Source: Thysanoteuthis rhombus | Lineage: Eukaryota > Mollusca > Cephalopoda > Oegopsida > Thysanoteuthidae | Reading direction: 5' to 3' | Assembly (NCBI GenBank): GCA_963457665.1 | Contig: OY735222.1 | Location: 38,072,581 to 38,136,580, forward strand | DNA: 64,000 bases | In this document: piece after piece, positions 20,940 to 60,146 of the stretch | Layout of the letters: every line of letters starts with the position of its first letter | Numbering within the stretch: position 1 is the first letter of the stretch | Notes under the pieces: model-generated | What the model was told of the DNA's origin: nothing | Databases searched by the model: none | The model's input: the letters and a program-made list of their open reading frames with translations, nothing else | Position numbers and translations under genes: made by a program

Positions 20940-21029
20940 TGCAGCTATTACTCGTCATATTTGTATAAAGGCTATCATCACTACCACGACGAGACAACTA
21001 AAGGACCACAATCATTACGATTAGAAAAT
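20940..21029 (+). promoter_or_regulatory. Probable 5' leader of the SIM-RING-PARP gene
   Basis: The bases before ATG 21030 have no in-frame ATG after the stop at 20928. A TATAAAGG box occurs at 20964-20971, which could place a start site near 20995, only some 35 bases before the ATG. Alternatively TTTTTGCAG ending at 20944 could be an acceptor for an upstream untranslated exon. The sequence alone does not decide between them. Confidence 0.35.
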
Positions 21030-21066
21030 ATGGACGAAAATAATTTAATCGTAATTGGATCTGATG
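21030..21066 (+). CDS. Coding exon 1 of SIM-RING-PARP gene (12 codons plus 1 nt)
   Basis: The exon starts at ATG 21030 in a good context (A at -3, G at +4) and reads MDENNLIVIGSD, then one G before the donor GTAAGT at 21067. The lone G joins AA at 47139 to make a Glu codon, giving MDENNLIVIGSD-E-SDSDEVVIIGS without a break. The match in both phase and character is the main support: LIVIGSD in exon 1 echoes VVIIGSE in exon 2. An in-frame TAG at 20928-20930 with no ATG between it and 21030 supports this start. The exon is far too short to be found by ORF length. The first hydrophobic stretch (Leu6-Ile9) followed by Asp/Ser fits a SUMO-interaction motif. The alternative is that exon 2 is reached from another, unseen first exon. 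Confidence 0.75.
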
Positions 21067-28229: not shown

Positions 28230-28890
28230 TAGCCCTTGTTTGCAATTACTGCCATGAGATATTTTTTTGTAACCCTTCACAAGCCCTATGCAAAATTCTC
28301 TGAAATCTTGGCTCCCCCTTTATTGCAGAAGACCTTCAAATCATCAATGTTTTTAATTCCCTCTGATGAATTCGATCTTTTAAATATTGACATAAATTTT
28401 CAATTGGATTCAAGTCAGGAGATTGACTAGGACACTGAAGCACCTCTCCATTGTTCTGAACAAACCATTTGCAAGTTGTTTTGGCTATACGCTTCAGGTC
28501 ATCATCTTGTCGAAAGATCCAATGTTCAAGCCTCAGCTGTTGTGCACATTAGCTTCCAAAATACTCTGATACATTGTTCCAAACACCCCGCCAAACCATG
28601 ATACTTCCACCTGCTTTCAAATCATCTTGGATCTCTTTTCGAGTTACCTTTGGATTTGCTTTGAATATTCTTTGCCTTTTTTGAGTTGCTCATGGAGAAA
28701 TTTTCCACGGAGCAGCAGTTTGAGAAAGGTTTTGGTGGTACCAAACTCCTTCCACTTCAGAATAATCGATCCAATGGTACCGACAGAGATATTTAACATC
28801 TTGGCTATGGCCCTGTAGCTGAAACCTTCATTATGTTGCTTAATTATGACATTTTTGTTTGGTTGTTAGCTTCTTTACTTTTACCATGAC
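28230..28890 (-). pseudogene. Tc1 transposase remnant
   Basis: Read on the - strand it begins with a helix-turn-helix-like segment, KQHNEGFSYRAIAKMLNIS (from about 28840 down), then KWKEFGTT. After a gap, KAGGSIMVW precedes an FRQDDDLKRIA block (usual second Asp region), and CPSQSPDLNPIENL (about 28435-28400) is the well-known Tc1 SPDLNPIEN signature. The region of the first catalytic Asp is missing and there are stops and frameshifts (e.g. TGA after TLMI). It is not functional; described only as a broken copy. Confidence 0.92.
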
Positions 28891-37599: not shown

Positions 37600-38021
37600 A
37601 TTACTTACGTTTTGAATGTGCAACAGAGGTTGATTGATGTCTTCCCAGACAAGTGGATTGGTTGAGGCAAACCAAATGTTTGGCCACCTCATTCACCTGA
37701 TTTTACCCCACTGGATTTCTCTTTATGGGGTCATGTCAAAATACTTTTCTACTCATCAAGACCAAATTCTTTGGATAACCTCAAAGCCAGAATTGCAAAT
37801 CAAATAATCACAGAGCAGCAGTTGACTAATGTTTTCATAGGGTTCGAAAATTGCTACAGATCGCTGTAATAATGGCTGTTATATTGAAGATTGAAAAATA
37901 AACTGGACAAAAAACCTTAAGCTTCATTTTTCATTTGCTGTTTATTATATAGTTGTATTATTTGTATATGTTTGAGTATTATAATTTTTAAACATTGCAA
38001 GAACTTCTGGACCACCCTGTA
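37600..38021 (+). mobile_element. mariner-family transposon remnant (3' half)
   Basis: 37600-37869 reads in frame as a transposase C-terminal part: VQQRLIDVFPDKWIG, one stop (TGA at 37663 where Arg is usual), then WPPHSPDFTPLDFSLWGHVK and a tail to the stop at 37867-37869. WPPRSPDLTPLDFFLWG is a signature of a mariner-like group whose ends resemble CAGGGTGGTCC. The complement of CCACCCTG at 38012-38019, followed by TA, fits that end. The 5' half is not recognisable. Confidence 0.88.
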
Positions 38022-47138: not shown

Positions 47139-48316
47139 AATCTGATTCAGATGAAGTAGTGATAATTGGTTCTGAAGGCTTAGACGATACAAATGATGGT
47201 GACGTTATCTTTGTTTCTCAGTACAAATCTTCTCCTGTACCAATCACAATTGACTGTACTAACTCTCCAGATGAAGAAACAGACCATACCAAAGTTGTTC
47301 ATATTAATGAAGAGCAACATTGTGAAATGGATGAAGACACTGATGATGTACAAGATATCAGTACAATCTCCTCTATTAAACTAGCAGATTTCTGTTCTCG
47401 TTCAAATCAAATTTATCATTGCAATGGTGATGCCGATGACCAATTGGTCATAAAACCCGGAGACTCTTTAGGCTCGCTCAGTATCAGTAATAACTTCAGT
47501 CTTTCACTCTCTGTAGAGGATCATGGGAAAACACCATCAAAACCAGTTATGGTAGTAGATGTCTCCACAAGAATAGAGACTCCGATGGAGAATGACAGCG
47601 AGTCTTGCAATCATGAATTAAACGTTTGTGATAAATGCTTGCCTGACAAAGAAGAAAATCCACACTCGGGTATGGATTACAGAACGGACTTTTTAAATAA
47701 CAATGAAAGAAAAGTGATAATGAAAAAGGAAGAAAATGTCTTGCCTAAAACGTCCGAAATGTGTAAATGGAATGTTACAGAATCAATCATCTCGGATAAA
47801 AACTGTGAGGTGCAGAAACCTGGGAGTTTACAAATCCATGAAGCAGAAACTGATAATACTGTTTCAATTGCTTCTTGCAATCAATCTAGATCTCTTCTGT
47901 CACCCAAATGTGATCCGTGCTGCTCGGATTCTACACAGTCTTCTGGTTTAATTTATCATTGCATGAAGGGAAAAGATGGTATTGACGAACATTCTGTAGC
48001 GATATGCCAAAAAGTGAAGGGTAAATTTTGCCACACGACCTCCGACTCTTCACCTCAGGAGAATACAAGTGAAACCTCTTCGGGAATTGATACAAATTCT
48101 TCTGGGAAGAAACACCAAATCGCGTCAAATTCTTGGATTCCAACTTCTATGATGGTGGAAGAGAATTCCTCGAGGGAAATAAAGCAAGGAACCTGTGTTG
48201 CATGTAAAGTTGTCATCAAGGAAAATGAAGGTTCGTCTTGTGTAGACCATCATTTCACTTGTCGGGGATGTTTAGAAGAGAAAGTAAAAGCTGTTCTTAG
48301 TAGAAGATGCTTAGAG
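47139..48316 (+). CDS. Coding exon 2: SIM cluster, acidic linker and most of the RING
   Basis: This 1178-nt exon lies between acceptor CATTTCAG (ends 47138) and donor GTGAGT (48317) and encodes residues 13-405. Hydrophobic cores next to acidic or Ser runs occur at Val19-Ile22, Val35-Val38 and Ile48-Cys52, with weaker ones at 65-68 (VVHI) and 149-154 (VMVVDV). These fit the SUMO-interaction motif pattern. The middle is Ser/Thr/Asp/Glu-rich and probably disordered. IYHC occurs twice (104-107, 284-287), and Cys169, His171, Cys176 and Cys179 could make a small extra zinc site (speculative). Near the end, Cys365-x2-Cys368-x11-Cys380-x2-His383-x3-Cys387-x2-Cys390 gives six RING ligands, with HHFTCRGC typical of RBR RING1. 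Codon use looks truly coding, with far fewer AT runs than the flanks. Reading into the intron would add six residues and stop. Confidence 0.93.
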
Positions 48317-50619
48317 GTGAGTAACTATTTTTTTTAGTTTAATTCATTTTTTTTTCTTTTTTTTTTTTTTCCGTATCTTGCACAGAGTTGGGGAACCTTT
48401 TCTTATTTAAAGGCCACATTGAAATTTATTGTCCTCGAACGAGGCTGCATTTGAGAAATCTTTAGTACGTTTACAGCAAAATCTAAAGTTCTAAACATTT
48501 GGTTAATAACCCATGTCCTGATTTAGGATTTAGAACATTTTTTATGACTTTTTAAAATAGCTTTTTGTGAGAAAGCATTGGGATATCAAGGCAGCATATG
48601 GTCTAGAAGGTTGCATATAGCCTTGAGACGGCAGGTCCCCTAACCTTGGTCTATCCGCTTCTACTATGAAGGCATTGTGATGAGATCAAGTTGACAATCC
48701 AAACCTGTATGTGCTCAATTTAATCATCTAATCATCTTTTAATGAATATCTTAGATATATAGGAGCTAACCCACTAAGAATGTCAAGGGAATTAAACATA
48801 AACAACTAAAGCCATGTAAAAGTGAACATTAAAATTAGTAGACTGATAAGTTTATATATATCCTGTAACTAAAACCATCACATTTAACTGATGGATCACC
48901 AACACACTTATAAAAAGTGTCTGAAACATTCCAAATACAACCAGATAGGTCAACCAGTATGATTTCTAAAATTTTAAAACCCACCCAAATCAATAAGAAT
49001 ACTATGAATGGGATGATAATAAACAGGAAAAAAGGAAAAGTATGAATTGGATGAGGCAGTTTTCTACCCAGAAAATAGATACACCTCCCTATAACGTCCT
49101 AAAGAAGGATCCAAATAAATCAAAACATTTGCCTAAAGAATCCCCAAAAGGCAGAAACCTAAACATATTTGTGTAGTGAATCCATTATTTCACCATATTT
49201 AAGGCTTTACTCTATCTAAATGTTTGTGTATAGAGCACTTCATAGACTAAATCACGTCAGATATTGAATTACTGATTTGTTCTTTGGTATATATATATAT
49301 ATATATATATACTTCTCAAAAGTTCACAGACCTTAAGATACAAAATGACTTCCTCTAAAGAGAAAAAATTGCCAGAAGATCAGATTCTTTATTCTCCCTT
49401 CTGGAGTGATTTAGATAGTTGTGTCAAATATGTGGGGAGACATGGAAAATGCTGGGTAACTTGACTGATGAATAGATTGACCAATCTATTGACCAAATAT
49501 CCTCAGAATTTCCAAGCAGCACCTTGTGTGTATGTATACACAAAAACACATATATTAATTGGTTTTGTTAATTGCAGATATCCTAAGTTTTATTGAATTA
49601 TCAAACCCCTTCTTGTTATTTTTGTTGTTCATTTGATGTTTTGGATGATCCATTCTAAGGCCTTCTTCCCCAGGTGTACTATCTGTATGTAAAGGTTGTG
49701 TGATCAGCATAATAGGGAGTTTGATAGTCAGAAAAAACTTTTTAAGTTTTAATGACCTTTCTCAAAATTATCAACAGATAGTTTCTCTCTTGATTTTCCT
49801 CAAGTAAATTCAGCCCTTTAAAAAGACTTTCCTACTTTTGTTGCTAGATTAGATCTATGTTTTAATTTCTATTCAGGAGTAAGAAATGTTTTTGGGATCC
49901 CATTGTTTTTCAGAAGATACAAAAAAGATCTCTCAGATACCGACAATTACATCCTGTCAAAAGGAACATGACTGGAGTCCTGTAATGATACAAAACAAGA
50001 TTATACTTGTTTTCATTCCTCGATAGTATTTTGTCTTCTGACTCTCATTTGGCAATCTATCTGTATCATAATTAGTGATGTCATTCTGTCTCCTACCAAA
50101 AGCATCAAATTTGGAAGTAAATCATTTCTTGTTATGGTGAATCCCATAAGTATGTGACTCAAGTGATCAGACAAGATTCATAGTCATATCATTGGTTTAA
50201 TACATCATTTTATTTTTTCATAACTTCACAGCAAACTCCTTGGCAGAAGTAAAGCTCAGTACTCTGTAACTGAGCATCTTTGTACTTACAGCATCTTCTG
50301 CATGCGACTTTGGATGGTTTGAGGAGTACTGTCTCGGCAATCAGGCTCTGGCACCATACATATCTAGTCTGACACAGCATGTTTGATGTGCTGCATAAGA
50401 GCTGCTCAAGTTACTGGAATATTTTCAATAATGCTCGATCAATGGTCATATAGCTTTTTCCTCCAATAAGGGAAGCATGGTTCAGATCAAATGTCTCCTT
50501 ATCTTATATTGATATTTATCATGGTTCTTTGGTTAAAATTTCCATAATTTTGTCACATTTTGCATAAATCCTACGATATATTTCCCTGCACTAAAAAAAT
50601 TTAATAATCCAAACATCAG

Positions 50620-50960
50620 AAAACAGGTCTGAAAGTCAGACCAAAGGTGTGTTAGTTTGATCTTTTGTGTCTTCCTTTGGAAGCCCCCACCTTTAAAAAC
50701 CCTCTCCTCTGAAAGCACTGTTTGTTTTCGGATGTAGTAAAATAGAATTCTTTATTCTGATGATATAATAATAAAATGTCACTTGAGTGACATCAGATTC
50801 TTAAAAAGACTGAGAGGGAATGCTTCATGGAGATGTTAGGCATATGCTTTATTGATTGGTCAGATTGTCAGTCAGCTAGTGCATTCAAAAATAAAGTAAC
50901 CTTGCTTGATTAATTCAATGAGTGGTCAGTGATTATTGCTATTGTCAGTCTTATCAAGTC
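50620..50960 (+). repeat. Dispersed repeat family, copy B
   Basis: Same landmarks as 39880-40480 with the middle shortened. Ends near GGTCAGATTGTCAGTC. Confidence 0.6.
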
Positions 50961-50984
50961 ATTATAAATATTGCTTATACATTC

Positions 50985-51110
50985 GTACCTCTTTAATCTG
51001 GCCACCTGGAGACCTAGCCATTGCTGGACCCCATGAGATGTTCGTAAACAGAAGTTGACTTGTAAGGGAACCCCCTATGTGAACAAATTCCCAACCTGGG
51101 AATAGTGCAG
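50985..51110. mobile_element. Possible pogo-like terminal fragment
   Basis: CGTACCTCTTTAATCTGGCC resembles pogo/Tigger ends ('ACCTC..TTAATCCGG'). The matching other end was not found. Confidence 0.3.
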
Positions 51111-51736
51111 AAAATAGAACAGTATTTTTTGATATAATTCATATAAAGTAAATTATATTGAAATAAATAAAAAAAAAAAATTGTTTCTTATGCTTTTCAA
51201 TCAGTCGTTAAAAATAATTTATAAGATTCAGAAAGAAGTTGATGAAAATGTCTAATTTATGCTAAATGTCAAATGTTGTCAAATTTAGAGTTCCTCAATT
51301 CAGTTTCAAAGTATGTTTAGGTTTTTACACCTTCTGTTTAACAAGTCAGTTTATAAACCATTAAATTATGGATCAAACTGTGATTTGAAACCAAATCAAA
51401 GAACTCTGAAGACAGATCCTAAAACTAATGGAGGCAGATTCTACACTTGCTGGACCACAGAGCACTTGATTAGAAAGGTATGAACTATATCTAAAAATTT
51501 TACAGATGAAACATTTGTCGCTGATTTTATATGTATATATTCTAAAAATAAAACCATTTCTTTAAGACCTTGAGAATCAACTCTACAACAGTCTCTTAAA
51601 AAAAGTACCAGAATATGGAAGAGTCAAGTATATTAAATTTAGATATAGATTTAAAAAATAAAATAGAATTTTAATATTTTTCTGTTTATTTCTCTGAAAA
51701 TATTTTCAGTTATCAAGGTTGTCTTATATTTTTCAG

Positions 51737-51785
51737 AGATCAGTGAAGTGCCTAGAAAGTGGATGCAATAATTTTTATTCAAAGC
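51737..51785 (+). CDS. Coding exon 3 (49-nt microexon): last RING zinc-ligand pair
   Basis: Acceptor TTTTTCAG ends at 51736 and donor GTAAGT begins at 51786. The exon starts in phase 0, reads RSVKCLESGCNNFYSK (406-421) and leaves one C that joins AT of exon 4 to make His422. Cys410-x4-Cys415 is the closing zinc pair of an RBR-type RING1, where C-x4-C rather than C-x2-C is usual. CLESGC followed by an aromatic-containing stretch and the ELK...LP of exon 4 matches the end of RING1 in RNF216-like ligases. Frame continuity on both sides and completion of the zinc site make this exon convincing despite its size. Skipping it would read Met-Asn-stop at the start of exon 4. Confidence 0.85.
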
Positions 51786-52044
51786 GTAAGTACATGACTT
51801 TGCTTTATTGATCTGAATTCTTTATCACTACTACCCACCACAGACCGGTTTAATCACTGTTGCTGGGTTTAGGTTATTCATGTGTTCTGAACTTTGTGTA
51901 TTGATTGATTGATCTTTGTTTGTATCTGGACTTAGTCCAACCTTAACCATTCACAGAAGAAATTTGAAACTTTGTGCACTTATTCTCCTCAATGAGCGGG
52001 GAAAATGTGTTTGCTTTTTCGTGTTTTTTTTTTTTTCTTTCCTT

Positions 52045-52212
52045 TTGGAATATTCACCCTGAATGGGGTTTATTAAGGTGAGGAGGGGATCAATTGATAA
52101 TATAATTAGGCTGTGAGTGTGTGTCCAGCAGTAATCATTCTTCACTTTTTAGTGAGCAGTCCAAAAAAGGCAAGAAAAGTAACTTATTCATTGATCATCC
52201 TAACCATCTGGG
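52045..52212 (+). mobile_element. 400-bp MITE-like family, internal fragment
   Basis: Landmarks: TATTCACCCTGAATGGGGTT, CACTTTTTAGTGAGCAGTCC and TTATTCATTGATCATCCTAA. Both ends are missing. Confidence 0.5.
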
Positions 52213-52317
52213 TTTTTTTTCAAATTCTATAACATTTTACCTGAAAATTAAACCGAAACAAAACCCCATCAAATGCAACACATTGCAAAAGATTTAAGGA
52301 TATTCCAACCTTTTCAA

Positions 52318-53102
52318 CCTTTTATTTCTTATTTCCTTTCTTTCCTCTTATTTCCTTTCTTTCCTCTTATTTCCTTTCTTTCCTCTCTATTTCCTTTCTT
52401 TCCTCTCTATTTCCTTTCTTTCCTCTCTATTTCCTTTCTTTCCTCTCTATTTCCTTTCTTTCCTCTCTATTTCCTTTCTTTCCTCTCTATTTCCTTTCTT
52501 TCCTCTCTATTTCCTTTCTTTCCTCTCTATTTCCTTTCTTTCCTCTCTATTTCCTTTCTTTCCTCTCTATTTCCTTTCTTTCCTCTCTATTTCCTTTCTT
52601 TCCTCTCTATTTCCTTTCTTTCCTCTCTATTTCCTCTCTTTCCTCTCTATTTCCTCTCTTTCCTCTCTATTTCCTCTCTTTCCTCTCTATTTCCTCTCTT
52701 TCCTCTCTCTTTCCTCTCTATTTCCTCTCTTTCCTCTCTATTTCCTCTCTTTCCTCTCTATTTCCTCTCTTTCCTCTCTCTTTCCTCTCTATTTCCTCTC
52801 TTTCCTCTCTATTTCCTCTCTTTCCTCTCTATTTCCTCTCTTTCCTCTCTATTTCCTCTCTTTCCTCTCTATTTCCTCTCCTTCTTCTCTCTTTCCTCTC
52901 TATTTCCTCTCTTTCCTCTCTATTTCCTCTCTATTTCCTCTCTTTCCTCTCTATTTCCTCTCTTTCCTCTCTATTTCCTCTCTTTCCTCTCTATTTCCTC
53001 TCTTTCCTCTCTATTTCCTCTCTTTCCTCTCTATTTCCTCTCTTTCCTCTCTATTTCCTCTCTTTCCTCTCTATTTCCTCTCTTTCCTCTCTATTTCCTT
53101 TC
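52318..53102 (+). repeat. 20-bp homopyrimidine satellite (about 38 units)
   Basis: The unit TTTCCTTTCTTTCCTCTCTA repeats without length change over 52380-52630, then shifts to TTTCCTCTCTTTCCTCTCTA to the end, with occasional 12-bp half units (e.g. near 52705). The first units lack one base (..CTCTTA). The sense strand is all C/T except the single A per unit. It gives a 290-codon Phe/Leu/Ser frame that is not a gene. It sits in intron 3. Confidence 0.96.
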
Positions 53103-53933
53103 CCCATCACAAGGACAAATTACCCAAGAATTAACTAAGATGTGATATTTTCTGGTTGAGACAATGGAATTTACCCTCATGGATCAAATAAAGATTACTA
53201 AATATAACGTGTACCTGAAGAAGGCTGGAGTGTACAATGGCTATAATGTGACTATATGATGACTGCAATTGATTTCATGTTCATATGGGTAGAAATTTTT
53301 TTTCAGATCTATGATATCCATTGAAAATGTCCCAAATCCTCCTTTTCATAGTTGAAATATTTTGATGAAAAATCTTTTTTGAAAGTTGTTGAATTTGGGA
53401 AAAAAAACTAACCATATATTAAATACCTCCCCAAAAGACTCAAATCATAATTTTAAAATTTCCTTTGTCCTCATAAAATCTATTTCATATTCATTACATG
53501 AAATATCATTTTGTATCCAAAACAATCCTCTGATTGACAAATCTTTTCTCTATATAATAGTGAGTATATGCAACATGTGTGCCTATATTTACGGATTGTC
53601 AGTAGTGACTATAAATCAGATCTTATCAAGGAAAATACAAAATGAAATGGAGGGGAAAACATTTTTTTATTTGATTAACTATTATATATTATTGTTATTC
53701 AAAGTTTTTTATGACTATTTTTTACTTTCATCTTCATTGATTAGTTTTTTCATCACAACTTTTACTCAGTACAATCTCCTTCTGGCTGTGAGTAAAAAAA
53801 ATATTTTGATTAGAAAATGAAGAATAAGCCTTGAATGGGATTTGAACCCACATCCCCAAAATTTAAAATACAACTGAAATGTTAAGATGTGACTGTCTAT
53901 ATAGAGAATGGGTTTAAGGGTGTTATTTCAAAC

Positions 53934-54145
53934 TTGTTGAGTTTTGGTAGTTCAATTGATGGAGCAGGTTTGCATAAATGGTGCTTCCCATTGAGGACCT
54001 GGGTTTGGGTTCAACCTAAGACTTATTCTTTCTCTTTTGATCAGATGCAATTTATTCAGTGCTTGAGGAAAATCAGCCTGAGTAAAAGTTGCAGTAAAAA
54101 GCTACCAATGAATTAAGATGAAGGTAAAAAGTAGTCATAAATTTT
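53934..54145 (+). mobile_element. tRNA-derived SINE (second family)
   Basis: TGGTAGTTCAATTGATGGAG (A-box-like) and GGGTTTGGGTTCAACC (B-box-like) are about 50 bp apart. The body ends with GATGAAGGTAAAAAGTAGTC. An upstream AATTGATGG-type head differs from the TTAGCTCAG family. Confidence 0.6.
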
Positions 54146-54487
54146 TCTTGATGATAATGAAGTGGGAAAAGTTTGAAACATAATTTGAATTCAGATGGGA
54201 AAAGATAGATTTTCACAGGCTATTAACCTTATTAGATTGGTCTGCAGCATTGACCATAACTTTGAAGAAATGGAAAATGGAAATTTATGTTTGTGTAAAG
54301 CATGCAACATGAAAATATTACCAAACAACAATATTTGAGATATGATGCAAAGAGGTTTCATTTAAGCTAATGTTAAATGTTATATATTTTGTTGTAAGAC
54401 TGTAGCAAGAAATCAAGATTATGACTGCATTTTGGTTAGTTCGGACTAATTTCCTCACCTTTGTTTCTTTTAACCCAATGTTTTGGC

Positions 54488-54665
54488 TACTCATTTTAAA
54501 GAATTCCCAGCCAAAATACGTTTTTAGTGGAGGGTTTTAATTTACAAGGTAAGTTTTGCTAAATTATGTCTGGCAGTGTTTATGCTTGTTTTTTGAAATT
54601 CCTGACTTTTTTAGTGATCAACAATGAACAAAAGGTGAGAGAAGTAATTGATCACATAGTTCGAT
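54488..54665 (+). mobile_element. 400-bp MITE-like family, internal fragment
   Basis: GTTTTTAGTGGAGGGTTTTA, AATTTACAAGGTAAGTTTTG, TTTTTTAGTGATCAAC and AATTGATCACATAG. The ends are missing and a T24 tract follows at 54679-54702. Confidence 0.55.
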
Positions 54666-54670
54666 ATAAT

Positions 54671-54704
<34 letters not shown>

Positions 54705-55354
54705 TTACGTTTAAGCTGCCATATTCTCTGGCCTTCTTCAGGTGCATGTTGTATGGAATGGCAAACCTTGTTCAAGGAAAGAAGCTTATATTTCTCTTTC
54801 ATTTGCCATAATGAGATATGGTATTTTATTGCTTCATCCTTGATTTAATACATTCATATTTTCACATATTGCAGACAGGTTTTACAAGAATGTACCCCAT
54901 CCACCTAATGAATCCAAATGTAAAATTAAACTTGAATAAAAAATATTCACATACTGCACTCTGTCCAAGTACAAAATATCTTTTTCATCTGTAAATTGCA
55001 ACCACCAACAGGTTAATATGCACACGTACCCATTTTGTAATTTTGCTATCACTATATTGAAGTATGATGGTTTTTAGGTATCCAACTCTATTTGATTTTA
55101 GAGTACGTCTTGAGAGTAGCTGATGAATTAAGCCTACTTGTTTGATACACTGGGTGACACCCTTGATAGTAAATGAATAATACAAAACAAATATTTGAAC
55201 ATTAGACACAAATTTGTATTTTATTCTATAGCTTAATGTATAAATTTTCTTCGATGTGTATTTTTAAGTGACATTTCCTTGAATGCCAGAAAATTTTCCA
55301 TTCAGACAAAATTCGAATAGATTCAAAACATTTATAAGAAAAGGGGGTTGAAGA

Positions 55355-55386
<32 letters not shown>

Positions 55387-57590
55387 CACATTACACTGCA
55401 TTGAAAAAATTTTCCCGATCAATTCTCTAAATGTGACCTAAGAGAATGTGTTCATAATTTAAGGAGCAGGAACATTTTTTTCAAAAACATCTCCTATTGT
55501 AAAATTGAATACAAAAAAAGTATGTAGTAAAGCTCGAGAAAAGCAGTCAATGTCTATTTTTTTTAATCCCTTAACAGCTTCACTTTTTTCTTTTTTATTT
55601 TCTATCGATTGGAAACAACTAGTTCTATTTCAGAAACGAATGTTGCCAAATACTATCAAAAATTGTGTAAAAAAAACATTGCAGGTTTTGAACTGACTGT
55701 AATCTTTTTCTTGTTCTCTTGCTATAATCTCACTTCCACTCAGTATTTAAAATAACCCTTTCAATTCTTAGCTACCTGTATCACACATTGCCCGACTTTG
55801 TTTAATAGCACATGCAGTTCAGAGTTACTAAAACTTGCAGCCAAGTGTTACAGATAAATTTAATAAAATGATCGGTAAATTTTAGAGGGCTGAAGTTACT
55901 GACTTGTATTTAGCTAGCTTATTGTAGATTTACTCAGTGTCTCCTGTGATACTACTCTTGTCTTAACAATTTGAACTCGGATTTATTTATTTTTTTTAAA
56001 TCCAGAGATCAAAATGAATATGGCTAAAATTTTTAGTTTATCCACATGATGAATGTACTGAGAACAAAGTGTGGCAATGTAAATAAACTACAAAACAATT
56101 CATGCATTTAGGAGAAAAAATCAATTCAAACCAAGTGAATAAATTGTGATTCAATTAATGGAGATAAAGGTTATAGTCATATTGTATACATACTATAGCA
56201 TGAGTAAGTAGGTAGTTCAAAGGTCTATCCTGAATTTCCGATTATTTGGACTTGTTGACATTCATGCATTTGAAGAAAAGTCAATTTGAATAAATTGATT
56301 CAATTCATAAGTTGAGCTAGTCTTTACATTTATCAAAATGCATTTCACCCTCTGCTTAATTTCCATTTATGAATGATGAAAAAAAAACCCATATGTTGAA
56401 TCATCAAATCTGTTTATTACTAATAAAACTTTGATACAGTTTACAGAACCTTTGATTTTCATTATTAAACATCGAAAGTCCTCTTAAAACATAATAGTGA
56501 TTGACCTTAAGACAAACAAACAAATGTTATATAATTGTTGCTGGTGTTAACAATGGCTACTTTATAATGCATATATCTTTGATCATGAGGGGCAGGTTAT
56601 GTCAACTTTTATGAAGGTTAAAATATCTCTTCTACTATTCAAAGTATTTTCTCAACAGAATAAAATTAGCAAACCAAAAGGCACCTAAAATTTATTTTAA
56701 TCTTTTTCTTTATTAGACTCTCTTTGTTTTGATTTGCTTCTTTGATGCATTTACTATAAGATAAACTACTGTATATTTCTTAATGTGTTGACCATGAGTA
56801 TAAGATGAGTTATGAATTGAGCAAAATTTCAGAAAATCAACTGACTTTAATATATATATATATAGTCATAGTCTTATCATGAAAAACATTGTTTTCAGGT
56901 TTTTTAAAGTGAAATTCTCCTCAGTGATGACTAATCTACCTAAAAAAAAAATGAATTAAAACGATATCACACCGTATACTACCAACTTAACATTTCATAC
57001 AAAACCTTAGTAATGACTTGAACTGACCTGAGTATAATAACGAACTGGATTTGGGCCATCTTTTCGTTTTGTTTTTTTTCTTTTTTTTTTTTTCTCTTGA
57101 ATTAGTGGAAAAACCTCTTCTTAGATATTACCATATATTCTAGAATATATCTTTGTTTGTGGATTAGTCATACTATTTTCCTTGTCTTTGTTATTCAATT
57201 TCTTTCTTCTTCCTTTTTAAAATTTTTACCTTGTATTCTTAAGGGTTTCTTGAGTGTCTGTCTGTTTTGGAATATCAAAATTAGTTGCTGTCAGGCATGT
57301 GTAACTGTCCTATTACACACATTCCCAGCAGGGACTAGTTTTGACATTCTAGAACAAATATCCTCAAGGAAAATAGTTTGACTAAACCACATACAATGAT
57401 TAAAACATTCAATTTAACAAAATTTATAAAAGAATCATTGTTTGAATACTTGATTTCTAATTGAATATTCAATTTAAGATGAATGAAAATGAATTTTGTT
57501 TGTAAATTTGCTGTACATTTCTTAGTTTTTTTGCTTGTAATCTTTGTTAAGATTAAGCACAATGACTTCTAATAAATACTATTTGAAACT

Positions 57591-57970
57591 ATCTACCAGC
57601 TGGCTATCATGGATTCAAGCTGCACTAATGGAGCTAGAGGGCAGATGATTTAAACATATATCTAGAAAAAAACGTTTGTTTGTTGTTTTTTTTTTAAGAT
57701 TCTCCCAAATAGTTTTTTGTGGGGGATTCAATTTGCTAAATTGACACCTCAGTTTGTGTCCTACTTATCTTTTGAAAATTCAGATTTTTTCTTAGTGATC
57801 GCAGCCCGACAAAAGGTGAGAGGAGTAATTTATTCACTGATCACTCTTGGAATCACTTTTGGAATTTTTTAATTAATCACCCTAACACAACACCATCACA
57901 TGATCAATGTCTTTTGCCAAAAGACGTTGATCATGTAACAATCTCTGTTGAATGACAAACTACACCTGTA
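57591..57970 (+). mobile_element. 400-bp MITE-like family, + copy, 80 bp upstream of exon 4
   Basis: TACCAGCTGGCTATCATGG, GCTGCACTAATGGAGCTAGA, 'GATTCAATTTGCTAAATTGA' (short deletion), TTAGTGATCGCAGCCCG, then GATCATGTAACAATCTCTGT and AATGACAAACTACACCTG. It contains an extra inverted GATCAATGTCTTTTGCCAAA / TGCCAAAAGACGTTGATC hairpin at about 57902-57935. Confidence 0.7.
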
Positions 57971-58049
57971 TTATGAATGGTTAAAATTGAGTACAATGCC
58001 TTCTGTTAAATACTATCATTTTTTCATTTTTCATTTATTTTTTTTCCAG

Positions 58050-58291
58050 ATGAATTGAAGCGTTGTTTACCTGCAATGATTGTAGACATCCTCGAGGAGG
58101 TTCTTGAACAGTATTATGTAGATTTTATAACAAATATGCTGATGAAGTCATATTCGACCAGTGATGCTTCTGCTGGACCTGATAATGAAGTGACGTCAGG
58201 AGAAATGGAACGTCCTCGTAAACGGTTAGCAGTCAGCTATGACAGTTACGACAGTATACCAGAGAACTGGGTGGAAATGGATCAAAAGTTT
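58050..58291 (+). CDS. Coding exon 4: post-RING helix, basic linker, start of PARP domain
   Basis: The exon lies between a T-rich tract with acceptor TTCCAG (ends 58049) and donor GTAAGT at 58292, and encodes residues 422-502. HELKRCLPAMIVDILEEVL continues as a likely amphipathic helix to about 455, as follows RING1 in RBR ligases. No IBR or RING2 cysteine pattern follows, so this is a lone RING1-like module, not a full RBR. Residues 456-475 form a Ser/Asp/Glu linker, and RPRKR (476-480) could be a nuclear localisation signal. IPENWVEMDQKF (491-502) matches the 'P-x-x-W-x-x-M' opening of PARP catalytic domains of the PARP14/15 group. Reading through the donor would add about 20 residues and stop. 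Confidence 0.92.
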
Positions 58292-60000
58292 GTAAGTACT
58301 TCATCGATTTGTTGTATTGAGGTTATCTTCTTCTTTAAAGATGCGGGGCTGAAATAATTGAAAAATATCCTTGAATTGTAAATTCCTTATCAAAAAGGTT
58401 GAAATGAAAAGGGTGATTTAGAAATATAAAAGCTTGTTTATACTGAGGAAGCCTTTTATTATAATCATGGATAATATATCAAACGGTTGTTTTCAAAATC
58501 AATCTGTCCCGATCGCTTTATTTAAAATGAATTGAAAACTCACCATCACAGTCAATAATTTCATCATTGTCAAATTTTGAAGTCCTGTGAAAAAAAATTC
58601 CATTGAATAATTCCAAAAATAAATATGATCAGAGTGAATTCTATTTATGATGTCAGTGGCATTTCCCACATCTAGATTTTCTAGAACCTAGAAGTTATTA
58701 ATAAACATGTCAGAATAAGGCCATGAAAAGTTTTTTTTTTTTTTTTTTTTTTCGTTCTTTCAAAATTAAAGTTTGCTTATTCTAGAAGGGGTCTAGTAGA
58801 GTTCTGATGCCAATTTTCTAGTCAGTAGATATAATGGTATAGATAGGAGCACTGCAACACACTAACACACTAACACATACACAAACAAACCCATAAATAA
58901 AAGATAGAACCTTTTGAATCTTTGACAACAAAATTATCTGCTTACTATAATCAAATCTTATCATCATGTAACTTGTTTAAGACAATAAATTCAAAAGGAC
59001 GTATGTAAATTGTTTCAATTTTCATATCCTTTGCTAAATGTTATCAGCCATTTACTGCTATTTTAAAGCTTGTTTTGAAGTGATAAGTAGCTTCTCCTGT
59101 GGTATGCAGATTTTTTTAATCAAACATTGAATTCTTTTTGGGAATGTCATTATCAAAATATTCAAGAAAATTGTTTTATATAGTTTACATTTATCAAATT
59201 ATAGCTGCATTGTGGTCTTGTGCCAGACTGAGGTTCCTTGAACCTAATAAGGATTAAACTCACTAGCAACAACCTGTATGACTAGTTTATCAAATATTGC
59301 TCTATAATTGATGCCTTTTATAGTACTGATGAAAAACATGATTTTTCTAAAATATCCACATATATATAATGCAATGTGTATCTATGTACAGGGTGGGTGA
59401 GAAGAAAGTCCTTATTAGAAATTGGTCATTTGATTATAAATTGAATTCTAGCACTTGGAAGACCAAAATAAAATTTGTTTCCTGAAAACAAAGCAATATT
59501 TACAAAAGTTATATATAATTTCTATTAGGGAGTTAATTCTCACCCACCTGAGGAAGTGAATGAGGTTATCAAACAATTATTATCAAAATCCGTTAGTCCA
59601 AAACCCTTTATTTGAAATGAATAAAAAAAATTGTACCAAAATGTTCATGATCATGAACTTTCTTTTCATTTATTTTTCGTAATCAATTCATAAGAATGAT
59701 TGTAAATTTAGAGCAATGAATGTCAATTGTTCCAATTTTTATATCCTTTGTTGAACATCATCAACTGGTTATTGTTTTCTAAAAGATCCTGTCCCAAAAT
59801 TGATCACAAGAAGTGACTACCTCTGTATTTTGCTGAGTCAAGTCGTTTCCATAAAATTACCCTAATATTTTGACTGTTTTGTAAAAAGAAAAAACAAAAA
59901 CTATTTTTTTGTCATCTTTCCCAAATAATGAACAAAAATGAATTTCATTTTAAAAAATTTTTTTCTTTTCTTTTCATCCTCTTTTCCCTTACTTGAACAG
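58292..60000 (+). other. Intron 4
   Basis: GTAAGT to TTGAACAG, 1.7 kb. It contains a T tract at 58732-58752, a CACTAACACA-rich stretch at 58856-58890 and a small MITE at 59389-59550. No other feature is visible. Confidence 0.88.
59389..59550. mobile_element. Small MITE with GTGGGTGAGAA ends
   Basis: The left end CAGGGTGGGTGAGAA and the complement of the right end (CAGGTGGGTGAGAA) differ by one G. It is 162 bp with no ORF, and TA precedes the left end but not the right. CAGGGTG ends suggest a mariner-type MITE. Confidence 0.6.
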
Positions 60001-60146
60001 AGCAATCAATTATTTGTTCTGGATACTGATTCTCAAGAATACGCAACTGTGTCTGGAATGTTTCTCTCCACAATGCATTATCCTGCTACCGAAATTGTAC
60101 GAATCTCGCGGATCCAAAATCCTATTCTTTGGAAGTATTATTGTTT
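60001..60146 (+). CDS. Coding exon 5: N-terminal part of PARP catalytic domain
   Basis: Acceptor TTGAACAG ends at 60000, and the exon begins in phase 0 and ends at 60146 in phase 2 before GTAAGT (60147). It encodes residues 503-550. Key features: EY at 515-516, a Phe followed by a Thr-containing helix end (523-526), and RIQNPILWKYYC (539-550). The pattern 'I-x-R-I/V-Q-N-P-x-L-W-x-x-Y' is a hallmark of the first third of PARP catalytic domains, closest in style to PARP14/15 and related macro-PARPs. The NAD-binding His-Gly motif and the His-Tyr-Glu (or variant) triad come later in the fold. I find no such exon before 64000, so activity and mono- versus poly-ADP-ribosylation cannot be judged from this window. 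Confidence 0.92.

What the first reader, a model, noticed from the sequence alone, without database searches (positions are those of the whole stretch)
47139..60146. RBR-type RING1 fused to a PARP14/15-like catalytic domain, with N-terminal SIMs
Seen: one in-frame spliced reading frame carries SIM-like motifs, a complete eight-ligand RING (Cys365 to Cys415) and the PARP hallmark RIQNPILW. Known: RING1 of RBR ligases binds E2 but transfer needs RING2; PARPs use NAD+; DTX3L with PARP9 shows that ubiquitin and ADP-ribose chemistry can be linked by two partners. Inference: here both activities sit in one chain, and a SUMO reader precedes them. I do not know of a described metazoan PARP with this exact order; it may exist unreported among invertebrate gene models.
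Basis: partly seen in the sequence, partly recalled or inferred. Interest (0 to 1): 0.85.

Follow-up and report, generated by a model that had tools for sequence, protein, structure and literature searches.

The report
SUMO-reading RING zinc finger fused to PARP
A mollusc gene, probably from a squid-like cephalopod, appears to encode one protein that joins a SUMO-binding tail, half of a ubiquitin-ligase module and a complete ADP-ribose-adding enzyme, a combination I found no description of; it would tie three protein-tagging systems together in one chain.

Summary
Seven exons, the last two just beyond the window in the same contig, give a stop-free 1246-residue protein: five SIM-like motifs (residues 6-68), a RING with eight zinc ligands (Cys365-Cys415), and a full PARP-type ART domain (Pfam E 9.2e-26). 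Exon 58050-58291 encodes both an RNF216-like stretch following RING1 and the PARP lead-in; this supports the fusion, although the zinc ligands lie in exons 2-3. Corrections: the RING resembles RNF216 RING1 only moderately (PDB E 0.09; no Pfam RING over cut-off). Among solved structures the ART is nearest PARP12, not PARP14/15. A 559-residue Gln/Pro/Ser/Thr-rich insert splits it, with the predicted mono-ADP-ribosyl triad H-Y-I intact. The SIM block resembles ZNF451's tandem SIM. IBR and RING2 are absent, so this is not an RBR ligase; no WWE, CCCH or macro domain was found. Most likely it is a SUMO-guided mono-ADP-ribosyltransferase that brings ubiquitin-charged E2 to its substrates; SUMO binding, activity and the ubiquitin step are inferred. 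Conservation and expression could not be tested.

The parts
21030..21066 (+). Exon 1: start codon and first 12 codons (MDENNLIVIGSD), first SIM-like motif LIVI; donor GTAAGT
47139..48316 (+). Exon 2: SIM-like motifs VVII, VIFV, ITID, VVHI (residues 19-68), long middle stretch without a Pfam hit, first six RING ligands (C365-C390)
51737..51785 (+). Exon 3: RING zinc loop II, seventh and eighth ligands C410 and C415 (CLESGC)
58050..58291 (+). Exon 4: stretch after RING1 (ELKRCLPAMIV aligns with RNF216; the helix that follows is inferred) and PARP lead-in (SIPENWVEMDQKF) in one open frame; holds no zinc ligand
60001..60146 (+). Exon 5: first part of the ART catalytic domain, RIQNPILW; the ART continues in exons outside the window (64187-64338 and 67349-69285 in window-coordinate equivalents)

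Best explanation
A real single-chain protein: tandem SIMs, an RNF216-type RING1 with the stretch that follows it, and a PARP12-type mono-ADP-ribosyltransferase domain. Proposed action: (1) the N-terminal SIM array binds SUMO or SUMO chains on a target (inferred from motif similarity); (2) the ART domain, with its H572-Y604-I1227 triad, adds mono-ADP-ribose to that target or to the protein itself (inferred from homology); (3) RING1 docks a ubiquitin-charged E2 beside the modified target (inferred; the weakest step). The IBR and RING2 parts that let RBR ligases take ubiquitin onto their own cysteine are missing. Any ubiquitin transfer must therefore go directly from the E2, or the RING serves only to bring ubiquitin machinery close.
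For: Open seven-exon model of 1246 aa with AG/GT borders at its six introns. One exon holds both an RNF216-like stretch after RING1 and the ART lead-in. Pfam PARP E 9.2e-26; PARP12 E 9.4e-31 and 5e-14 for the two halves, aligning DPKIFVIF with DPSIFVIF. RING1: in a PDB-wide search the best hits are the two RNF216 chains (E 0.091); Smith-Waterman score 74, reached by 0 of 5000 full shuffles and 3 of 5000 shuffles that keep Cys and His in place. Zinc loop II has four residues; PMC9834252 section 9 (read) gives 2-4 in RBRs other than HOIL-1 and two in canonical RINGs. SIM block: five motifs in the first 95 residues, reached by 2 of 5000 within-95 shuffles; the only PDB hit at E<=10 is the ZNF451 tandem SIM (E 0.29), ungapped, 0 of 5000 shuffles.
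Against: No Pfam RING family over its cut-off, and the RNF216 and ZNF451 E-values (0.091, 0.29) are not significant on their own. The RNF216-like stretch in exon 4 is short; with the end of exon 3 it is matched by 40 of 5000 shuffles, and all zinc ligands lie in exons 2-3, so the join 51785/58050 still matters. RNF216 positions C517 and Y519, at the E2 site (PMC9834252), are A367 and K369 here. No relative in any other species could be searched, so selection on the fusion is untested. No transcript evidence. The 559-aa insert in the ART could disturb folding. The SIM patterns and the strict RING pattern were written after looking at the sequence.
Confidence: 0.48

Rival explanations
1. The RING is a leftover zinc scaffold with no E2 function; the protein is simply a SUMO-guided mono-ADP-ribosyltransferase.
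For: E2-site residues differ from RNF216 (A367, K369; alignment read with PMC9834252 section 9); IBR and RING2 are gone (only Cys427 and Cys550 between residues 417 and 560); Pfam RING score far below cut-off.
Against: All eight zinc ligands and the Leu after the sixth ligand are kept, and similarity beyond the Cys/His positions beats all but 3 of 5000 shuffles, which suggests the surface is still constrained.
Confidence: 0.3
2. A SUMO-targeted ubiquitin ligase of the ordinary direct-transfer RING kind (like RNF4) that also carries an ART.
For: Clustered N-terminal SIMs with a RING is the RNF4 layout (SIMs: PMC12751080 passages); five SIM-like motifs.
Against: Zinc loop II has four residues where canonical RINGs have two, and the residue after the last ligand is Asn, not the linchpin Arg/Lys (position recalled). 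RBR RING1s hold E2-Ub open and prevent direct discharge.
Confidence: 0.12
3. Artefact: exons of two neighbouring genes, or a dead copy, were strung together.
For: Long introns (26 kb, 3.4 kb, 6.3 kb) and no transcript evidence. The zinc ligands (exons 2-3) and the ART (exons 4-7) meet only across the join 51785/58050, and the RNF216-like stretch in exon 4 is short (40 of 5000 shuffles).
Against: That stretch and the ART lead-in share one open frame in exon 58050-58291. All six introns have GT/AG borders and keep the frame open for 1246 codons. On contig C27 the whole-genome PARP search lists only this gene's exon and the RING search only its own three exons.
Confidence: 0.08

Closest known systems
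RNF216 (TRIAD3), RBR ubiquitin ligase
   Same: From the second ligand on, the same ligand spacing (C-x11-C-x3-H-x2-C-x2-C...C-x4-C) except one more residue between ligands six and seven, and a following stretch with EL..(V/C)LP (the first ligand lies outside that alignment)
   Different: No IBR and no RING2 (no catalytic cysteine domain); ART instead; E2-site residues differ
PARP12 / Clade 3E PARPs (PARP7, PARP12, PARP13)
   Same: Catalytic domain sequence and H-Y-I triad (Clade 3E isoleucine in PMC2964712 passages)
   Different: No WWE or CCCH zinc fingers found; 559-aa insert between the DASYSHQF and KMFIAKVLVG segments; RING1 and SIMs upstream
Dictyostelium U-box/macro/PARP protein and fungal/moss/algal PARP-UBCc proteins
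   Same: An E2-binding or E2 domain and an ART in one chain (PMC2964712 and PMC4245714 passages)
   Different: U-box or UBCc rather than RBR RING1; U-box form has a macrodomain; UBCc forms belong to Clade 6; no SIM array described in the passages seen
Deltex E3 ligases (RING-DTC), including DTX3L/PARP9
   Same: Link a RING-bound E2~ubiquitin with ADP-ribose (PMC7615817 passages)
   Different: DTC binds ADP-ribose; no DTC hit here; DTX3L and the putative ADP-ribosyltransferase PARP9 are separate proteins
RNF4-type STUbL and ZNF451 tandem SIM
   Same: Clustered SIMs at the N terminus; ungapped 37-residue resemblance to ZNF451
   Different: RNF4 has a canonical RING and no ART (recalled); the ZNF451 linker letters GPLRP are not kept (KSSPVP here)

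Membership tests
RBR ubiquitin ligases | RING1 with eight ligands and RBR-type zinc loop II | tested here: met
   Pattern and shuffles; RNF216 best PDB hit; four-residue loop II. Moderate: E 0.091, no Pfam hit over cut-off.
RBR ubiquitin ligases | IBR domain and RING2 with catalytic cysteine | tested here: not met
   Between residues 417 and 560 only Cys427 and Cys550 occur; no IBR hit.
Canonical RING E3 | Two residues in zinc loop II and a linchpin Arg/Lys after the last ligand | tested here: not met
   CLESGC has four residues, next residue Asn; linchpin position recalled.
PARP Clade 3E (PARP7, 12, 13) | ART domain with H-Y-I triad, PARP12-like | tested here: met
   H572, Y604, I1227 counted. 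Nearest among PDB chains only.
PARP Clade 3E (PARP7, 12, 13) | WWE domain, with or without zinc fingers | tested here: not met
   No WWE or CCCH hit at E<=10 for residues 1-618 or at E<=1 for 477-1246.
PARP14/15 (macrodomain PARPs) | Macrodomains before the ART | tested here: not met
   No macrodomain hit; PARP12 scores above PARP14/15.
SUMO-targeted ubiquitin ligases | Multiple SIMs | tested here: met
   Five SIM-like motifs, 2 of 5000 within-95 shuffles reach that; ZNF451 match. Motif level only.
SUMO-targeted ubiquitin ligases | Ubiquitylates SUMOylated proteins | not testable with these tools
   Needs biochemistry.
Deltex ligases | DTC domain after the RING | tested here: not met
   No DTC hit.

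The most novel reading that the evidence does not exclude
A one-chain writer of a hybrid ADP-ribose-ubiquitin mark on SUMOylated proteins. SIMs bring the target, the ART adds ADP-ribose, and RING1 holds E2~ubiquitin so that the new ADP-ribose hydroxyl, rather than a RING2 cysteine, accepts the ubiquitin. This would do in one protein what Deltex ligases and PARPs do in pairs, with the ART standing in for RING2 in an RBR-derived module.
Probability: 0.1. Interest if true: 0.92.

Novelty: new variant of a known kind. Interest (0 to 1): 0.62.

Why it matters
Ubiquitin and ADP-ribose chemistry are known to meet, in the cases reviewed in the passages I saw through separate partners (Deltex ligases with ADP-ribosylated targets, RNF146 with tankyrase; PMC12687431 and PMC7615817). 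A natural fusion of an E2-docking RING1 with a mono-ADP-ribosyltransferase, led by SUMO-binding motifs, would show that all three systems can be wired in one chain. It would also offer a ready construct to test whether ADP-ribose can replace the RING2 cysteine as ubiquitin acceptor, and an example of an RBR module stripped to RING1.

Tried and rejected
Two-gene artefact: held unlikely, not excluded; exon 4 holds a short RNF216-like stretch and the ART lead-in, but the zinc ligands are in exons 2-3. After rechecking this I lowered the best explanation from 0.50 to 0.48 and raised the artefact rival from 0.06 to 0.08. Search for the His-Gly/Tyr exons inside the window: none; they lie beyond it. 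PARP14/15 assignment: rejected once the whole domain was read. The second ART half alone scores 25.6 bits, just under Pfam's 26.7 cut-off. Splicing-out of the 559-aa insert: 61 in-frame GT..AG pairs span it within the ranges tried, none with a GTRAG donor, and GC is 0.485 in the insert against 0.305 in introns, so I treat it as coding; rare splicing is not excluded. True RNF216 in this genome: not found with two human RNF216 pieces or a codon pattern; these searches are weak across introns and prove nothing; five IBR hits suggest that RBR-type genes exist there. Candidates L039-L041 looked like chance. Other copies of the RING: the 3 matches of 5 candidates are the gene's own exons. Relatives in viral contigs: 4 pattern matches, none confirmed. 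Eight literature searches for a RING-PARP or RBR-PARP fusion (open-licence PMC only; two returned nothing) listed none that I recognised; listings were seen, and of the papers only the passages or section cited. Not run: a scan of genome contigs (bacteria and archaea), seven of eight viral-contig scans, search_dna_similar, a Pfam scan of the whole window for other genes. Structure prediction was not run: its rule takes proteins that the DNA gives letter for letter, and both the RING and the ART are split over exons.
Full report
What was checked. The four named exons join in one open frame with AG acceptors and GT donors. A coding-score scan of about 107 kb upstream of 47139 (window plus 60 kb beyond it) listed an exon at window 20945-21066 ending in MDENNLIVIGSD with donor GTAAGT. 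It ranked 15th of the 19 candidates scoring above 5. Start codon 21030, last exon base 21066.

The rest of the gene. The window is bases 38072581-38136580 of contig C27 of an unnamed 2.73-Gb genome, and a Pfam PARP hit lies about 210 bases past its end. DNA fetched there gives two further exons, 64187-64338 and 67349-69285 in window-coordinate equivalents. They carry LFHGT...FDWRLCGKHGTVYGHG, then GSYFAGDASYSHQFTDD, a 559-residue stretch, and KMFIAKVLVGKYTGGNSS...DPKIFVIFDSAQAYPDYLIEYII-stop. The full model is seven exons and 1246 residues.

How firm the fusion is at DNA level. Exon 58050-58291 encodes ELKRCLPAMIV, which aligns with RNF216 just after RING1, then a likely helix, and then SIPENWVEMDQKF, which aligns with the PARP15 lead-in LPEHWTDMN. 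So a piece of each side sits in one open frame. The RNF216-like piece is short, however: with the end of exon 3 it was matched by 40 of 5000 shuffles, and all eight zinc ligands lie in exons 2 and 3, so the join 51785/58050 still needs a transcript.

The RING. All eight ligands are present: C365, C368, C380, H384, C387, C390, C410, C415. From the second ligand on, the spacing equals that of RNF216 as printed, except for one more residue between ligands six and seven; the first ligand lies outside that alignment. Shuffled sequences matched the RING patterns in 0 or 1 of 20,000 trials; the strict pattern was written after looking. Against all PDB chains the best hits are the two RNF216 chains, E 0.091 with a 97-residue query; with the 190-residue query RNF216 follows the PARP15 chains at 0.18. 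Alignment score 74 was reached by 0 of 5000 full shuffles and 3 of 5000 shuffles that hold Cys and His fixed. Pfam shows zf-RING_14 far under its cut-off (E 7.5 and 8.1 for long pieces; 0.73 for a short piece, where ParBc_2 at 0.16 ranked above it). I call it RNF216-type RING1 with good but not conclusive support. Zinc loop II has four residues, which PMC9834252 (section 9 read; other passages) gives as an RBR feature. The same section says RBR RING1s hold E2-Ub open and prevent direct discharge. Its positions RNF216 C517 and Y519 at the E2 site correspond to A367 and K369 here, so E2 binding needs a test.

The catalytic domain. Pfam PARP E 9.2e-26 for residues 477-1246. PDB: first half PARP12 9.4e-31, PARP15 3.3e-21, PARP14 1.4e-18, PARP10 1.8e-14; second half PARP12 5e-14, PARP15 1.2e-9. 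PARP7 and PARP11 do not appear in either list, so 'nearest PARP12' holds among solved structures only. The two halves abut in PARP12 (chain residues 122 and 123 of 6v3w), so the insert sits at one place in the fold. It is rich in Gln (98 of 559), Pro, Ser and Thr, with a histidine run. Two paralogous ART stretches of this genome that run across the same place, in L031 and L035, have no such insert. The triad is H572, Y604, I1227; PMC2964712 passages describe Clade 3E, with PARP7 and PARP12, as bearing isoleucine there apart from two members, and Clade 3 as mono-ADP-ribosyltransferases or inactive. WWE, CCCH and macrodomains were not found.

The N terminus. Five SIM-like motifs, LIVI, VVII, VIFV, ITID and VVHI, fall in residues 6-68. 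2 of 5000 within-95 shuffles and 1 of 5000 shuffles of the first 470 residues reach five. With a slightly narrower pattern and without exon 1, four motifs in 80 residues were reached by 6 of 5000 within-80 shuffles. Both patterns were set after looking. Independently, the only PDB hit at E<=10 is the tandem-SIM chain of ZNF451, 5d2m_G, E 0.29, ungapped over 37 residues, score 66 against a maximum of 54 in 5000 shuffles. PMC12751080 passages describe 5D2M as the source of ZNF451's two SIMs and RNF4 as having four clustered SIMs.

Mechanism. Shown by sequence: the order SIM-like motifs - RING1 - ART in one frame, absent IBR/RING2, ART motifs intact. Inferred: SUMO binding, mono-ADP-ribosylation, E2 docking. 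The RING lacks both usual ways of finishing ubiquitin transfer (RING2 cysteine; linchpin residue, position recalled), so either it recruits ubiquitin machinery without catalysis or it uses another acceptor. Deltex ligases transfer ubiquitin to an ADP-ribose hydroxyl and only weakly rely on the closed E2~Ub state (PMC7615817 passages), which makes the coupled ADP-ribose-ubiquitin reading possible but unproven.

Organism. A mollusc: 52 haemocyanin domain hits. One unit scores 708.7 and 709.8 bits against the fourth unit of 6r83 and 4yd9 but 465.8 against that of 3j32 and 449.3 against that of 8trz. I recall the first three as cuttlefish, squid and abalone, which points to a coleoid cephalopod. 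Species unknown.

Known or new. PARP surveys mention a U-box/macro/PARP protein in Dictyostelium and PARP-UBCc proteins in fungi, moss and algae (PMC2964712, PMC4245714; passages). None of eight literature searches listed an RBR RING1-PARP fusion that I recognised. Unannotated gene models elsewhere may well contain it. Conservation is the main gap: no other animal genome could be searched.

Noticed in passing
G000:C25:56607734-56625492 (minus strand), outside the window: Nine haemocyanin unit hits with the same score (97.0 bits, 464-aa open frames) about 2.2 kb apart: a tandem array of apparently near-identical functional units. Identity was not measured; real expansion or assembly artefact not resolved.
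   Followed up: no
exon equivalent 67349-69285 (outside the window), residues 619-1177 of the protein: A 559-residue Gln/Pro/Ser/Thr-rich insert, with a run of histidines, inside the ART fold.
   Followed up: partly
52330-53099: About 38 copies of a 20-bp pyrimidine-rich tandem repeat in the intron between exons 3 and 4.
   Followed up: no
28339-28689 (-) and 37666-37866 (+): Broken frames that look by eye like Tc1/mariner transposase remnants (family names recalled, not searched).
   Followed up: no
about 23.1-23.6 kb upstream of window base 1 (C27, + strand): A 165-codon open exon candidate with hydrophobic stretches (by eye), possibly a neighbouring membrane-protein gene.
   Followed up: no
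G000:C2:69323597-69323989 (-) and 69358916-69359317 (+), L032 and L031: Two PARP hits in single open frames about 35 kb apart on opposite strands; the L031 frame holds an ART part without the insert (the L032 frame was not printed).
   Followed up: partly
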